Source: J088 sp003695505 [NCBI: Candidatus Dadabacteria bacterium] (GTDB lineage: Bacteria; J088). Taken from it: 11,467 nucleotides of DNA. Position 1 is the first letter of the stretch; each line of letters begins with the position of its first letter. The position numbers and the translations under genes are program-made. The notes under the pieces are model-generated. The model saw only the letters and a program-made list of their open reading frames with translations, made no database searches and was not told where the DNA came from. The stretch spans positions 1 through 11,467 of the forward strand of contig RFIY01000060.1 in the NCBI GenBank assembly GCA_003695505.1. The letters run 5' to 3'. This document shows, piece after piece, positions 4,723 to 11,467 of the stretch.

Positions 4723-5520
4723 GTGACGAGCCTGAACCATGCCACGATCTGGATCACTGGCGCGTCGTCCGGCATCGGCGAGGCCTTCGCGCGCGAGGCG
4801 GAAGCGGCCGGCGCCACCCGACTGATCCTGAGCGCGCGTCGCGAGGATGCCCTTGAGCAGGTCCGCGCCGGCATGCAACGTCCCGACGACCACCGCGTCG
4901 TCCAGCTCGACCTGGCCGACACCGACGCGCTGGGGCCGCTTGCCGAACAGGTCTGGCACGAACACGGCCCGATCGACATCATCGTTCACAGCGGTGGCAT
5001 CACGCAGCGCAGTCTTGCGAAAGACACGACCTTCGACGTGTATCGGCGCATCATCGACGTTGACTTTCTCGGCACCGTCGCGCTGACACAGGCGCTGCTG
5101 CCGCACATGCTGGAACGTGATCACGGACATATCGTGATGATCTCGTCGCTCGTCGGCAAATTCGGCACACCCCTGCGGTCGGCCTATGCGGCAGCCAAAC
5201 ACGCCCTGCACGGTTATGCCGATGCCGTACGCGCCGAACTCGCGGACACGGGTGTACACGTCACGGTCTTTTGCCCCGGATTCATCCGCACGAACATTTC
5301 GGTGAATGCGTTACTCGAAGACGGCACGCCGCAGGGGCGGGACGACCCGGCGATCATCAACGGAAAAGACCCCGCCGACTGCGCACGGGCGATTCGCAAG
5401 GCGATCGAAAAAAATCGGGGCGAAGCCTACTTTGCCGGCAAGGAAATGCTCGGCGTATACCTCAAACGCTTTACGCCGCGTCTCTTTGAGAAGATAATCC
5501 CGCGTCTTCCGGTTCGTTGA
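4723..5520 (+). CDS. Short-chain dehydrogenase/reductase (DHRS7-like classical SDR)
   Basis: The protein is 265 aa from GTG 4723, normal for a classical SDR. The nucleotide-binding TGASSGIG lies at residues 12-19 directly after the N-terminus. SARR near residue 40, after the second strand, suggests NADP(H) preference. HSGG (89-92) stands where NNAG is usual. The catalytic Ser142, Tyr155 and Lys159 (YAAAK) are present with normal spacing. Helix alpha-4 normally carries an Asn of the catalytic tetrad (DVNxxGT); here it reads DVDFLGT, with Asp114. The FLGTVALTQALLPHML and GKFGTPLRSAYAAAKHALHG stretches resemble DHRS7/DHRS7B-type SDRs. Hydrophobic or steroid-like alcohols or ketones are plausible substrates, but this is not readable from sequence. 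It is divergent from the TonB receptor, and its last 50 bp overlap the convergent gene at 5471-5878. Confidence 0.88.
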   Translation: MTSLNHATIWITGASSGIGEAFAREAEAAGATRLILSARREDALEQVRAGMQRPDDHRVVQLDLADTDALGPLAEQVWHEHGPIDIIVHSGGITQRSLAKDTTFDVYRRIIDVDFLGTVALTQALLPHMLERDHGHIVMISSLVGKFGTPLRSAYAAAKHALHGYADAVRAELADTGVHVTVFCPGFIRTNISVNALLEDGTPQGRDDPAIINGKDPADCARAIRKAIEKNRGEAYFAGKEMLGVYLKRFTPRLFEKIIPRLPVR

Positions 5521-5878
5521 ACAGGCGCGCTTCGCACCAGCGCAGCACCGCCTCTTCATCGACGGACACATAGACTTCGGCCGCCGGCTCGGCTCCCTCG
5601 CGCATCAGGCGATCAACGGCGAGTTGTTTGCGAAAATTGGGTGACCTGATTGCCCAAAAACGGACGCCGGCCGCCGTCCCACGTGCAGCCATGTCGCGGA
5701 TCGCCTCCGCATAGCCGGGCCCAACCGGTGTCGGATTCGCGCAACGGATCAGCACGAGCCGCCTCGGCCGCTGCTCGAGTTCGGACGTGACCGCCCGGAG
5801 CGCCGCGATCAGTTCGGGCGTCCCCAGCTCGGGCGCGATGTCGATCTCCAGGATCTCCTGTTCATTGAAACTTTGCAT
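5471..5878 (-). CDS. Small protein of unknown function, possibly STAS/SpoIIAA-like fold
   Basis: 135 aa, with a good SD (AAGGGGG) upstream of ATG 5878 on the minus strand and codon use typical of the neighbours. I do not recognise the family with certainty. The pattern is an N-terminal strand (EILEIDIAPELG), a helix (TPELIAALRAVTSELEQ), a hydrophobic strand (RRLVLIRCA), a helix (GYAEAIRDMAARGTAAG), a strand (VRFWAIRSP), then FRKQLAVDRL and VYVSVDEEAVLRWCEARL. This alternating beta-alpha order, and the C-terminal element resembling the closing F-x-S-x-D-E-A-x-x-W segment of STAS/SEC14-like proteins, suggest a cytosolic alpha/beta regulatory domain. There is no signal peptide or membrane segment. 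Its 3' end overlaps the SDR gene by 50 bp on the opposite strand. It is divergent from the topoisomerase operon across a 178-bp gap, so shared regulation is possible but unproven. Confidence 0.7.
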   Translation of the reverse strand: MQSFNEQEILEIDIAPELGTPELIAALRAVTSELEQRPRRLVLIRCANPTPVGPGYAEAIRDMAARGTAAGVRFWAIRSPNFRKQLAVDRLMREGAEPAAEVYVSVDEEAVLRWCEARLFNEPEDAGLSSQRDAA

Positions 5879-6056: not shown

Positions 6057-7952
6057 ATGGCTACACCCGAACAGGTAGTCTACGACGAAAACAGCATCCG
6101 GTCCCTCGACTGGCGCGAGCATATCCGGCTGCGGCCGGGCATGTATATCGGCAAGCTCGGCGACGGTTCGACGCCCGATGACGGCATCTATGTCCTGATC
6201 AAGGAGGTCATCGACAACTCGATCGACGAGTTTGTCATGGGCGCCGGAAACCGGATCGACGTGACGGTCGCCGAGCGACATGTCAGCGTCCGGGACTACG
6301 GCCGCGGCATTCCGCTCGGCAAGGTCGTCGACTGCGTGTCGCGCATCAACACCGGTGGCAAGTACGACTCCGAGGCATTCAAGAAATCCGTCGGCCTCAA
6401 CGGCGTCGGCACCAAGGCCGTCAATGCGCTCAGCGCACGCTTCGAGGTCGTCTCGTACCGCGACGGCGCCTGCAAGCGGGCGGTGTTCAGCCGTGGCGAG
6501 CTGCTCGAAGACCCGCCCGAGGCGCCGACAGACGAACCCAACGGCACGCTGGTCGTCTTTGAGCCCGATCCCGAGATCTTTCGCAACTACCGTTTTCAGC
6601 GCGAGTACATCGAGGAGCTGCTCTGGAAATATGCCTGGCTCAACGCCGGCCTGACCCTGTCGCTGAACGGGCAGAAATACAAGTCGGCGAACGGCCTGAA
6701 GGATCTGCTCGAAGCCAAGACCGAAGCGGACCGGTTGCGCTACCCGATCATCCACTTCAAGACGGACGACCTCGAAATCGCGTTGACCCATGCGAGCCAG
6801 TATGGCGAAGACTATTACAGCTTCGTCAATGGTCAGCATACGACGATGGGCGGCACGCACCAGGCGGCGCTGCGCGAAGGCGTCGTCCGCGCCGTCAAGG
6901 AGTTCTTCAAGAAGGACTACGATCCATCGGACATCCGCGCCGGCCTGATCGGTGCGATCGCGGTACGTATCCAGGAACCGGTCTTCGAATCGCAGACCAA
7001 GACCAAACTGGGTTCACAGTACGTCGACCCCGAACAGACGCGCACGATCCGAAGCTGGATCGTCGACTACCTCAAGACCGAGCTCGACAATTTCCTGCAT
7101 CGCAACAGCGACGTCGCCGAGGCGATGGAGCAGCGCATCCGCGAAGCCGAGCGCGAACGCAAGGATCTGGCCGGCATTCGCAAACTTGCACGCGATCGCG
7201 CCAAGAAGGCGGCCGTGTACAACAAGAAATTGCGCGACTGCCGCGTCCACCTGGGCCGCAACCACGATCGGGCGCAGGAATCGACGCTATTTATCTGCGA
7301 GGGTGATTCGGCAAGCGGTTCGATCACGAAGGCCCGCGATGTCGAAACGCAGGCAGTATTCAGCCTGCGCGGCAAGCCGCTCAACTGTTTCGGCCTGACC
7401 AAGAAGGTCGTCTACCAGAACGAAGAATTCAACCTGATCCAGCACGCCCTCAACATCGAGGACGGCCTCGACGGCCTGCGCTATAACCGCGTCGTAATCG
7501 CGACCGATGCCGACGTGGACGGCATGCACATCCGCCTGCTGCTGATGACCTTCTTCCTGCAGTTTTTCCCGGAGCTCGTACGACACGGCCATGTCTATGT
7601 ACTGCAAACCCCACTGTTTCGGGTGCGCAACAAACAACGCACGATCTATTGCTACGATGAACAGGAAAAACAGCAGGCCATCGAAACGCTCGGCGGCAAG
7701 GTCGAAATCACCCGCTTCAAGGGACTCGGCGAAATTTCGCCCGACGAGTTTGAAGCCTTCATTGGCGAAGATATGCGGCTCGATCCGGTTCGCCTGTCGC
7801 AGCAGACCAAGATTCAGGCACTGCTCGGCTACTACATGGGCAAAAATACGCCACAGCGTCAGGAATTCATCATCGGCAACCTTCGCCTCGAGGACAACCG
7901 CGACATCGAGCCGCTCGAAGAAGAGGTCGTTGACGCGGAGGCGACCGCATGA
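6057..7952 (+). CDS. parE: Type IIA DNA topoisomerase subunit B (ParE/GyrB-like, Bacteroidota-type)
   Basis: This 631-aa ATPase subunit pairs with the downstream cleavage subunit to pass one duplex through another. The GHKL ATPase domain occupies residues 1-230: RPGMYIG, the general-base Glu50 and Mg-binding Asn54 in [13 protein letters not shown]-contacting Asp80 in DYGRGIP, and the [13 protein letters not shown] lid. The transducer carries the QTK loop in [11 protein letters not shown]. The TOPRIM domain has Glu415 (EGDSASG), LRGKPLN, and Asp484/Asp486/Asp488 (DADVD). [13 protein letters not shown] follows, and the protein ends soon after. The length is that of ParE, without the insert of proteobacterial GyrB. 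From memory, stretches such as [28 protein letters not shown] and [15 protein letters not shown] match Bacteroidota topoisomerase subunit B far better than E. coli ParE (which has GLGEMNP). It forms an operon with the next gene via an ATGA overlap. Gene naming as parE is by role. Confidence 0.93.
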
Positions 7953-10573
7953 CCGAACTGCCGCCCGACAACATCGGCGACGACACGCTCGCCAACGATG
8001 CCCAGCACATCGATGAGCTCTACGAGAGCTGGTTCCTCGAGTACGCCAGCTATGTGATTCTCGACCGCGCCGTTCCGTACCTCGAGGACGGACTGAAACC
8101 GGTGCAGCGGCGCATCCTGCACGCGATGAAGCTGCTCGACGACGGCCGCTACCACAAGGTCGCGAACATCATCGGCAAGACGATGACGTTTCATCCGCAC
8201 GGAGACGCGTCGATCGCCGATGCACTGGTCAATCTTGGCCAGAAGGATCTGTTGATCGACACGCAGGGCAACTGGGGCAACATCTTCACCGGCGACCCCG
8301 CCGCGGCGCCGCGATACATCGAGGCACGGCTGAGCAAATTCGCGCTCGAAGTGCTGTTTCACCCCGAACTGACCGAATGGCAGGCCAGCTACGACGGACG
8401 CGCCAAAGAGCCTGTGATGCTGCCGGTGCGCTTCCCGCTGTTGCTCGCCCAGGGCGTAGAGGGGATCGCCGTCGGTCTGTCGACACGGATTCTGCCGCAC
8501 AACTTCCTCGAACTGATCAATGCGTCGATCGCGGTACTCGAAGGCCGCCCCTTCAAACTGTATCCCGACTTCCCGACGGGGGGGATGATCGATGTCAGCC
8601 AGTACAACAAGGGAGCCCGCGGTGGTCGCATCAAGGTGCGTGCCCGCATCGAAACGGTCGACGCAAAGACCCTGCGCATCTGCGACATTCCGTATGGCAC
8701 GACGACGACCAGTCTGATCGACTCGATTGTTGCCGCCAATGAAAAAGGCAACATCCGCATTCGCAAGATCGAAGACAACACGGCCCGTGAGGTCGATGTC
8801 CGCATCCACCTGCCATCGGGCGTCTCCCCCGAAGTGACGATCGACGCGCTGTACGCCTTCACGAATTGCGAGGTTTCGATCTCGCCGAACTGCTGCATCA
8901 TCTACAATGGTCGTCCGCTGTTCACCGACGTTCACGAACTGCTGAAGATCAGCACCGAGCATACGAAGCATCTGCTCGAACGCGAGCTGCAGATCCGGCT
9001 GGAAAAGCTCGAACAGAAATGGCACGCCGCGTCGCTCGAAAAAATCTTCATCGAAAACCGCATCTATCGCGACATCGAAGAATGCGAAACGTGGGAAAGC
9101 GTTCTTGAAACGATCGATCGCGGTCTGGAGCCCCACAAGCACAAGCTGCGCCGCGAGGTCACCGAAGACGACATCGTCAGGCTGACAGAGATCAAGATCA
9201 AGCGCATCTCGAAGTACGACAGTTTCCGCGCCGACACCTATCTCGCCGAGCTCGAAAAGGACATCGCCCAGGTCAAGCTCGACCTGCAACACATGACCGA
9301 ATACACGATCGCCTGGTTCGAGGGCTTACGTGAGCGCTACGGCAAAGGTCGCGAGCGGCGCACGAAAATTCAGACGTTCGAACAGGTCGACACCGTTGCG
9401 GTCGCCGCCGCTACAGAAAAGCTCTACGTCGATCGCGCGGAGGGCTTCATCGGCACGGGCCTCAAGAAAGCCGAACTGATCGGCGAATGTTCGGCGCTCG
9501 ATGACGTGATCGCGATCCGCAAGGACGGCAAGTTCACCGTGTCGAAGGTCGGCGACAAGGTCTTCATGGGCAAGGACATCCTGCACGCCGCGGTCTGGCG
9601 CAAGGGTGATGAGCGCACCGTATACAACATGATCTATCGCGATGGACGTCAGGGTCCGGTGCGCGCCAAGCGATTCACGATCCCGTCGGTCATTCGCGAT
9701 CGTGAGTACGACCTGACGAAGGGCAACCCTGGCAGTCGCGTGCTTTACCTGACCGCTAACCCGCAGGGCGAAGCCGAAGTCGTCCAGGTCACGCTGCGCG
9801 AAGACTGCCGCGCCAAGAAAAAGCAGTTCGAGTTCGATTTCGGTGACATCGATATCCGCGGGCGCGGTTCCCACGGCAACATCGTCACCAAATACCCGGT
9901 AAGGCGGATCACGCAGCTCAGCGTCGGGCCGTCGACGCTGGCGCCGGAATCGATCTGGTTCGATCCGGCGACCGGGCGCCTCAACACCGAGGAGCGGGGT
10001 CGCCTGCTCGGCGAGTTTGGCGGCGATGACCGTATTGTTGCGCTCTACGATAATGGTGAGTTCGAGGTCACCGACTTCAACCCTGACAACCGCTACGGCG
10101 ACGGGCTGCTGTTGCTCGAAAAACGGCCCGCCCACGGGATTCTGACGCTGGCCTATCAGCACCCGGAGCGCGACGCCGACTACGTCAAGCGCATCGAACT
10201 TCCAGTTGAGCCGACCGGCAAGCGCGTTGCGCTGCTGCCAGAAGGCGCCGGCAAGGTGCTCTTTGCCAGCCTCGATGCCCGCCCACGCATCCGCGCCGAG
10301 TTTCGCAAGGGCAAACGCAAGACGCCCGAACCGCAGGAGCTGGTCCTCGAAGACATCGTTGGCGTCAAGGGCCTCACGGCCATTGGCAACAAACTGGCAC
10401 GACACCGCGTCAAAAAGATCGTACCACTCGATCCGCTGCCCGAACCGGAGCCACAGGCGACGCCGGGCGACGCCCCGGCCGCCGACAGCGAGTCACCTTC
10501 CCGCGACGACGATACTCCGACGCCGAACAACACCGGCTCGCTGACCCAGTTATCGCTACTGGATCCGGAATAG
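7949..10573 (+). CDS. parC: Type IIA DNA topoisomerase subunit A (ParC/GyrA-like, Bacteroidota-type)
   Basis: This 874-aa cleavage subunit starts in an ATGA overlap with subunit B, with GGAGG at 7937-7941, 7 nt before the ATG. The catalytic Arg122-Tyr123 sits in PRYIEARL, and the DNA-intercalating Ile181 in STRILPHN. The resistance-determining loop reads [10 protein letters not shown] (82-91): Ala87 replaces the usual Ser, while the acidic Asp91 is kept. A long coiled-coil/tower region spans about 320-470. A beta-pinwheel C-terminal domain follows (about 490-820), with only a degenerate GyrA-box-like GRGSHGN (638-644), so wrapping as in gyrase is doubtful and decatenation is more likely. The tail from about 829 is Pro/Asp-rich, surely disordered, and ends QLSLLDPE. 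Stretches such as [27 protein letters not shown] and [11 protein letters not shown] are, from memory, characteristic of Bacteroidota subunit A. Whether the host also has ordinary gyrase and ParCE cannot be seen here. Confidence 0.93.
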
Positions 10574-10740: not shown

Positions 10741-11467
10741 TCAGACGTGATGCTTTGACATAAGTGCCTCGTACCAACTCCGCACCCGCGGGTCGGTATT
10801 CAGCTTTCCTTCGAACCGCCGCGCCGCATGCGACAACGCCGATGGATCCCGCTGTAAGGTGCGCCCCAGTGCCGTCAGGGACCACGCGCCCGTTTGCAAC
10901 CCGGCATACGCCAGCATCCCTCGCCCCAGCGCCGGGAGTCTCCGCTTCCCCGGCTGGGCCAGTACCTTCGGATCGATCCCAAGTAGTGCAGCGACCTTGT
11001 GCACCGCCTGCTCCATCGTCAGATCCAGCTCTACAATATTCTGACCCCGCCGCATCACGGCTTCGGCGAAGCCATCTGGAGCCAGCACTGCCTGTTTGCG
11101 GCTGTTGCCACGTTTGAAGTCCAACTGGACGGGCTGGTCGATGCCTTTCTGCACAAATGTCTGAAACGCCGCAACGGCAGCGTCACGACGCGTCGAAAAA
11201 GTCCCCAGTACCATGTCGTTTGTCAACCATTCCGGTCCAGCGCCGCTCAGGTAGTGGCGATGAGAAGACCAGGGATACTCCTCTGGCCGATCAACGGCGC
11301 CTACGCGAACGGGGTTGAGGTGGATATATCGAATCAATTCACTCAAATACGCATCTCTGTCGACGAGGATCGCACGATGCCGGTCTTGAAACAGATGTCC
11401 GGAGCGATTGCGCGTTCGGTTGAACCACTGACCGTACCGGCCGAACAGGCTCTGCATCGCGCGGCCA
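10741..11467 (-). CDS. REP-associated (RAYT/IS200-like Y1) transposase with C-terminal DnaA-like HTH, partial
   Basis: The minus-strand frame is still open at the window edge: codons for G-R-A precede the Met at 11457, matching the family's internal sequence. The true start therefore lies beyond 11467. About 241 residues are visible. The Y1 nuclease part shows YGQWFNRTRNRSGHLFQDRH, AILVDRD and SELIRYIHLNPVRVGAV; the Tyr in RYIHLNPVR is the expected catalytic nucleophile. YPWSSHRHYLSG closes the nuclease core. The metal-binding HUH motif is expected upstream, outside the window. Positions after about 120 form a separate C-terminal domain (ALLGIDPKVLAQPGKRR…RGMLAYAGLQTGAWSLTALGRTLQRDPSALSHAARRFE) that resembles the DnaA domain-IV DNA-binding fold. 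RAYTs are single-copy nucleases linked to REP hairpins; no typical REP hairpin is seen here, but a relic of the gene's own 3' end lies immediately downstream. Confidence 0.85.
   Translation of the reverse strand, partial: GRAMQSLFGRYGQWFNRTRNRSGHLFQDRHRAILVDRDAYLSELIRYIHLNPVRVGAVDRPEEYPWSSHRHYLSGAGPEWLTNDMVLGTFSTRRDAAVAAFQTFVQKGIDQPVQLDFKRGNSRKQAVLAPDGFAEAVMRRGQNIVELDLTMEQAVHKVAALLGIDPKVLAQPGKRRLPALGRGMLAYAGLQTGAWSLTALGRTLQRDPSALSHAARRFEGKLNTDPRVRSWYEALMSKHHV

What the first reader, a model, noticed from the sequence alone, without database searches (positions are those of the whole stretch)
6057..10573. Bacteroidota-type topoisomerase IV operon in an apparently proteobacterial genome
Both subunits carry long stretches that I recognise from the Bacteroidota type IIA topoisomerase pair rather than from proteobacterial ParE/ParC or GyrB/GyrA. 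Examples are [10 protein letters not shown] in place of [17 protein letters not shown], and EYDLTKGN..S in the C-terminal domain. Gene order (B then A, ATGA-coupled) also fits. Neighbouring genes look proteobacterial. Base composition is uniformly GC-rich, so if it was transferred, this was long ago. It may be a third type IIA enzyme beside gyrase and ParCE, or may have replaced ParCE.
Basis: partly seen in the sequence, partly recalled or inferred. Interest (0 to 1): 0.65.

Follow-up and report, generated by a model that had tools for sequence, protein, structure and literature searches.

The report
Bacteroidota-type topoisomerase IV in deep-branching bacterium
The two genes encode an ordinary, intact DNA-untangling enzyme of the kind typical of Bacteroidota, here in an unclassified bacterium whose own gyrase looks neither Bacteroidota nor proteobacterial; it most likely does the job of topoisomerase IV and was probably acquired from another phylum long ago.

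Summary
Window 6057-7952 and 7949-10573 (+) encode an intact ParE/ParC pair with an ATGA overlap. The A subunit scores 1270 bits (cut-off 780) against NCBIfam NF009397/PRK12758, the Bacteroidota-type family, and far below the cut-offs of the ordinary ParC and GyrA models. Nearest relatives fetched are Bacteroidota and Calditrichota (ParE 65-70%, full-length ParC about 49-59% identity), not proteobacterial ParC/ParE. Catalytic residues are intact, the GyrA box is absent, and the GyrA-Ser83 position is Ala.

Two parts of the interpretation fail. (1) The host is not shown to be proteobacterial. Its gyrase is about 54% identical to E. coli's, at most 60% over its whole length to any GyrB listed, and falls outside both the sampled Pseudomonadota and the Bacteroidota/Calditrichota. 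A search of its phylum covered only itself. (2) A third enzyme was not found: the bin shows one gyrase pair plus this pair, so it fills the topoisomerase IV slot. The bin is 84.5% complete and contigs under 3 kb appear masked.

The family is patchy across bacteria, so ancient horizontal transfer is likely, but the donor cannot be resolved. A new member of a known kind, of modest interest.

The parts
6057..7952 (+). parE-like gene, B subunit: GHKL ATPase, transducer and Toprim domains, 631 aa
   Evidence: Pfam PF02518, PF00204, PF01751 over cut-off, PF00986 at 29.7 against a cut-off of 29.8; 65-70% identity to the 80 named relatives kept; ATPase and Toprim residues intact
7949..10573 (+). parC-like gene, A subunit of the PRK12758 family, 874 aa
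   Evidence: NF009397 1269.9 bits, cut-off 780; PF00521 359.9 bits; AlphaFold model mean pLDDT 83.0, pTM 0.65
7937..7952 (+). GGAGG (7937-7941) and ATGA stop/start overlap joining the two genes
   Evidence: sequence read
8207..8209 (+). Codon (GCG) for Ala87, the position of E. coli GyrA Ser83 in the quinolone-resistance region; Asp91 (GyrA Asp87, codon 8219-8221) is kept
   Evidence: alignment; codons and residue numbers checked
8315..8317 (+). Codon (TAC) for the presumed catalytic Tyr123 (E. coli GyrA Tyr122)
   Evidence: alignment; invariant in the 47-row alignment; codon checked
9404..10444 (+). ParC C-terminal domain (residues 486-832): all-beta, predicted as two half-propellers of the GyrA/ParC CTD type, no GyrA box
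   Evidence: model mean pLDDT 90.6, pTM 0.74; 17 rows at Z 8.1-11.3, all type IIA topoisomerases

Best explanation
The pair is a complete type IIA topoisomerase of the PRK12758 family. It most likely works as this bacterium's topoisomerase IV: an A2B2 enzyme that cuts one DNA duplex through Tyr123, passes a second duplex through under ATP control, and so decatenates and relaxes DNA while the separate gyrase supercoils it. The family is the usual topoisomerase IV of Bacteroidota and Calditrichota. Its patchy presence elsewhere, and here in a lineage whose gyrase lies outside those phyla, is best explained by an old horizontal transfer of the parE-parC operon followed by full amelioration. Shown: sequence, family, intact active-site residues, absence of a GyrA box, one gyrase pair and no other type IIA genes in the searchable bin, and composition that fits the bin. 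Inferred: enzymatic activity, cellular role, that a transfer took place, its direction and donor.
For: NF009397 over cut-off while parC_Gneg, parC_Gpos and gyrA models score far under theirs. Trees place both subunits with the PRK12758 family and far from E. coli ParE/ParC/GyrB/GyrA and the host's gyrase. GHKL, Toprim (E, DxDxD) and Arg-Tyr residues are intact; QRRGGKG is present in host and E. coli GyrA and absent in the window protein. The bin has two A-type and two B-type genes, all candidates scored, and the other two pass the GyrB and GyrA cut-offs. Of 20 genomes reached through loci that hold the family, all candidates scored, 19 show one GyrB and one ParE of this type and one (G392) only the latter. 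The family is over cut-off in 13 of 386 genomes spread over bacteria, own included, 9 of them the long form, and in 8 of 396 of one other phylum, 3 of them the long form. Host GyrB is separated from Bacteroidota and Calditrichota by a 100/99 branch. The operon's tetranucleotide correlation to the bin sample is 0.65-0.66, within the 0.42-0.70 of 22 bin pieces.
Against: The donor is unresolved: with the short form as outgroup the window is an unresolved deep branch outside a 95/96 set that holds the sampled Bacteroidota and Calditrichota, which an ancient vertical origin with losses would also allow. Without outgroup it pairs with Oligoflexales at 97/93, and in ParC alone at 88/66, but both are long branches and mostly flagged for odd composition. 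The bin is only 84.5% complete, and 3 of 20 sampled contigs, the three under 3 kb, read as N, so a hidden parC/parE is possible. Family counts score at most two candidates per genome, so they cannot exclude a third enzyme there. Foreign DNA pieces reach a composition correlation of 0.58, so composition alone is not proof of origin.
Confidence: 0.75

Rival explanations
1. Vertical inheritance: this topoisomerase IV type was present in an early ancestor of several phyla and was lost or replaced in most, so no transfer into this lineage is needed.
For: With the short form as outgroup the window attaches at an unresolved fork outside the set that holds the sampled Bacteroidota and Calditrichota, and the family with its short form occurs in many of the groups sampled.
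Against: The long form is sporadic within one well-sampled phylum (3 of 396); one of these, G419, nests with Calditrichota, which suggests that transfer does happen in this family (misbinning of G419's contig was not tested). In the ParE tree rooted on E. coli ParE, GyrB and host GyrB the window lies inside a 97/95 set that leaves other Bacteroidota outside, though that root is very distant.
Confidence: 0.2
2. Binning error: contig C94 belongs to another organism, so the host has no such enzyme.
For: The window is a whole 11.5-kb contig of a 395-contig metagenome bin, with no longer contig to prove linkage.
Against: GC and tetranucleotide signature fit the bin, though foreign pieces overlap the lower part of the range; reported contamination is 0.25%; the RAYT-like gene at the contig's end has a 93% identical partner (137 aa) on contig C342 of the same bin. 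Removing the contig would leave the searchable bin without any topoisomerase IV.
Confidence: 0.08
3. A third type IIA enzyme beside gyrase and an ordinary ParCE.
For: Incomplete bin; contigs under 3 kb appear masked.
Against: Only gyrase and this pair are found; parC and parE would both have to be missing.
Confidence: 0.06
4. A phage- or plasmid-borne topoisomerase.
For: Of 172 plasmid records with any match, 3 cover most of ParC, at 51-52% identity, all three Bacteroidota. Of 1867 phage records with any match, 6 cover at least 80%: unannotated faecal contigs, five of 4.4-5.1 kb and one of 42.6 kb. ParE matches phrog_543, a phage topoisomerase family, at 447 bits.
Against: Neighbours carry metabolic and transport names in Pfam and NCBIfam (most were not scanned against PHROGs); no PADLOC hit for the pair.
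Confidence: 0.03

Closest known systems
NCBIfam NF009397 / PRK12758, DNA gyrase/topoisomerase IV subunit A (Bacteroidota type), with its ParE partner
   Same: Score well over the curated cut-off, match over residues 16-853 of 874; same gene order where it can be seen: of 80 named loci the parC frame opens within 60 nt of the parE stop in 26 and within about 2.4 kb in 22 more; same catalytic residues.
   Different: Host lineage outside Bacteroidota/Calditrichota; long branch of its own, at most 70% (ParE) and about 59% (full-length ParC) identical to the relatives fetched. In the other 32 of 80 loci no parC frame was found downstream (19), the locus was too short (12) or parE had no end (1).
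NCBIfam NF007209 / PRK09631, DNA topoisomerase IV subunit A (short form)
   Same: Residues 20-655 match it and are over cut-off (761.6 against 644).
   Different: The model has 635 positions and its match ends at residue 655 of the window protein, near the predicted border between the two C-terminal lobes (about residues 661-665); the second lobe, to residue 832, has no counterpart in it.
E. coli topoisomerase IV (ParC/ParE)
   Same: Type IIA core and domain order; no GyrA box; C-terminal lobes resemble ParC and GyrA CTDs.
   Different: About 34% (ParE) and 30% (ParC core) identity; under the cut-offs of parE_Gneg and parC_Gneg.

Membership tests
PRK12758-type topoisomerase IV A subunit (NF009397) | Score over the curated cut-off of 780 bits across the model | tested here: met
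   1269.9 bits, model positions 18-854 of 870
PRK12758-type topoisomerase IV A subunit (NF009397) | Long C-terminal beta-propeller-type domain | tested here: met
   Model pLDDT 90.6; 17 PDB rows at Z 8.1-11.3, all GyrA/ParC, each aligned to one half only, so a closed propeller is not shown
Topoisomerase IV (function) | Intact ATPase, Toprim and catalytic Arg-Tyr residues in a B-A pair | tested here: met
Topoisomerase IV (function) | No GyrA box Q(R/K)RGG(R/K)G | tested here: met
   Absent in window ParC, present in host and E. coli GyrA; use of the motif as a filter seen in a passage of PMC9348778
Topoisomerase IV (function) | ATP-dependent decatenation without negative supercoiling | not testable with these tools
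   Needs purified protein
Proteobacterial ParC/ParE (TIGR01062, TIGR01055) | Scores over curated cut-offs | tested here: not met
   213.3 against 628.9 and 318.7 against 723.35 bits
DNA gyrase (TIGR01063, TIGR01059) | Scores over curated cut-offs | tested here: not met
   246.3 against 877 and 379.5 against 882.4
Pseudomonadota (host) | Host GyrB inside the clade of sampled Pseudomonadota GyrBs | tested here: not met
   Excluded by 100/99 branches; p-AU 0.018. One marker and five Pseudomonadota rows only
Bacteroidota (host) | Host GyrB with Bacteroidota GyrBs | tested here: not met
   Separated by a 100/99 branch

The most novel reading that the evidence does not exclude
A phylum-level, so far unnamed lineage lacks ordinary ParC/ParE and relies on a PRK12758 topoisomerase IV gained by transfer. 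The long form of this enzyme would then be a repeatedly transferred, self-contained decatenation module, with a non-Ser residue at the main quinolone contact (47 of 47 aligned), that can take over an essential chromosome-segregation job across phyla.
Probability: 0.3. Interest if true: 0.5.

Novelty: new member of a known kind. Interest (0 to 1): 0.3.

Why it matters
Topoisomerase IV is essential and a drug target, and is usually thought of as inherited with the chromosome. A patchy, cross-phylum distribution of one type, with the main quinolone serine replaced, would bear on how freely such enzymes move and on natural quinolone tolerance. As it stands it is one more patchy occurrence of a family that NCBI already names.

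Tried and rejected
Proteobacterial ParC/ParE placement: rejected by family cut-offs and trees. Gyrase: no GyrA box, scores under cut-offs. Defence system: no PADLOC hit for the pair. 16S rRNA to name the host: none found in the bin. A guess that G082's phylum was Pseudomonadota was dropped: by eye the larger part of its 396 genomes shows only one A-subunit match. A first idea to use 'exactly two A-subunit matches' as evidence was dropped, because those calls scored at most two candidates per genome. Promoter and terminator scans of the operon found no more than shuffles. No REP-like palindrome array was found beside the RAYT-like gene; one 13-nt palindrome at 10966-10983. Literature searches listed no paper whose title or abstract start tells of transfer of this topoisomerase IV type; only part of the hits were listed (15 of 77; 15 of 29; 12 of 140). 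'PRK12758' is in no paper of that library, which holds open-licence papers only. Only search listings were seen, except passages of PMC9348778.
Full report
What is there. The window is the whole of contig C94 of a 2.83-Mb, 395-contig metagenome bin, 84.5% complete and 0.25% contaminated. Two overlapping genes, 6057-7952 and 7949-10573 (+), encode 631 and 874 aa. They are joined by ATGA, with GGAGG before the second start. Pfam finds the type IIA B- and A-subunit domains. The A subunit passes only two NCBIfam models, NF009397 (1269.9 bits, cut-off 780) and NF007209 (761.6, cut-off 644). It falls far under parC_Gneg, parC_Gpos and gyrA. The B subunit passes none of the gyrB/parE models: its best is 411.3 against 740.

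Relatives. Of 567 stretches of named genomes that matched patterns from ParE, 507 encode a relative; the best 80 were kept and the other 427 not seen. By title 75 of the 80 are Bacteroidota or Calditrichota; the others are an Oligoflexales bacterium (L017), Candidatus Uabimicrobium (L030), two titles that look wrong (L012, L016) and one unassigned bacterium (L082). ParE identity is 65-70%, full-length ParC identity about 49-59%. The ParE tree (49 rows), the ParC tree (48 rows) and the joined trees all put the window in this family, which hold E. coli ParE/ParC, put it far from those (over very long branches, which the tool warns of). Its own branch is long and its place unsure. It pairs with Oligoflexales at 88/66 in ParC and at 97/93 in the joined tree without outgroup, where both rows are flagged for odd composition, and the fork is unresolved in ParE and with the short form as outgroup. 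The donor is therefore unresolved. That looks like a clearer case of transfer than the window itself, if its contig is rightly binned, which was not tested.

The host. The bin's GyrB (807 aa, C33) and GyrA (764 aa, open to a contig end, C233) pass the gyrase cut-offs. Each is 53.8% identical to E. coli's. The best GyrB identities over the whole length were 58% in 145 genomes sampled across bacteria, 60% in 396 genomes of G082's phylum and 54% among the 30 listed of 202 plasmid records; partial alignments without the Toprim insert reach 65-70%. In the GyrB tree a 100/99 branch separates the host from Bacteroidota and Calditrichota. Another 100/99 branch leaves it outside E. coli, Neisseria and three Alphaproteobacteria, and outside G082 with them; a sister place to that clade has mixed support, 98/64. 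In a second tree the host is unresolved and its inclusion in the five Pseudomonadota is rejected at p-AU 0.018. Searches of its order and phylum covered only itself. So the host looks like a deep lineage of its own, not shown to be proteobacterial and not Bacteroidota. This rests on one marker. The neighbouring genes (nitronate monooxygenase-like, weakly PaaX-like, fatty acid desaturase, TonB receptor, SDR, RAYT-like) do not by themselves name a phylum.

Does the contig belong to the bin? The operon's two 4-kb pieces have GC 0.60 and tetranucleotide correlations of 0.65 and 0.66 with a sample of 19 bin contigs. Twenty-two bin pieces have GC 0.576-0.666 and correlations 0.42-0.70, and 17 foreign pieces 0.06-0.58, so the ranges overlap. 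The RAYT-like gene has a 93% identical partner over 137 aa on C342. Misbinning is unlikely but not excluded.

How it works. The GHKL ATPase residues, the QTK loop, the Toprim Glu and DxDxD, and the Arg-Tyr of the A subunit are all kept. The QRRGGKG box of gyrase is absent. The C-terminal domain is missed by Pfam's beta-propeller model in 43 of 47 members at E up to 1, and no PDB sequence found at E 1e-20 aligns past residue 484 in its best stretch. Its model (mean pLDDT 90.6, pTM 0.74) matches GyrA and ParC C-terminal domains at Z 8.1-11.3 in 17 rows. Each row aligns only one half of the domain, residues 1-176 or 180-347 of the model. The match to the short-form model NF007209 ends at residue 655, close to that border, so the long form reads like the short form plus a second lobe; that is inference. 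The mutual arrangement of the lobes is unsure. With one gyrase pair in the bin and no other type IIA genes found, the natural role is topoisomerase IV: decatenation and relaxation. In 20 genomes reached through loci holding the family the same division is seen: one GyrB plus one ParE of this type in 19, and only the latter in G392. Activity itself was not tested.

Quinolone region. The Ser83 position of E. coli GyrA is Ala in the window ParC, and Ala in 45, Thr in 1 and Met in 1 of the 47 aligned long-form proteins, window included; it is Gln in the short-form L164, while host GyrA keeps Ser and Asp. From established knowledge of quinolone binding (recalled) this predicts weaker drug contact in this topoisomerase IV; it is a prediction only.

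Verdict. Ancient transfer is the likeliest history; vertical descent with losses is not excluded.

Noticed in passing
L012 (PBNL01000044.1): Record titled 'Euryarchaeota archaeon SP189' carries ParE and ParC that nest inside Flavobacteriales: probably a mislabelled or mixed metagenome genome.
   Followed up: partly
L016 (JAGHBR010000230.1) and L174: Record titled 'Caldisericaceae bacterium AUK261' groups with Calditrichota in ParE, ParC and GyrB: probably a mislabelled genome.
   Followed up: partly
G419 (L264), G532 (L265), G683 (L263): Three genomes of one other phylum hold the long-form enzyme out of 396 sampled; G419's groups with Calditrichota.
   Followed up: partly
window 10741-11466 (-): RAYT-like gene (NF047646 38 bits, under its cut-off of 80) cut by the contig end, with a 93% identical partial copy on contig C342 of the same bin and a 37% relative on C159.
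   Followed up: partly
window 5471-5878 (-): 135-aa ORF divergent from parE with no match in Pfam, NCBIfam or PHROGs at E 0.001.
   Followed up: no
window 9404-10444 (+): The ParC C-terminal domain of this family escapes Pfam PF03989 in 43 of 47 members and is predicted as two half-propellers rather than one clearly closed ring; the short-form match ends near the border of the two lobes.
   Followed up: partly
OY726004.1, NZ_OY725749.1, NZ_OY725948.1: Records deposited as Bacteroidota plasmids carry a PRK12758-like ParC, beside what look like chromosomal genes in NZ_OY725749.1.
   Followed up: no
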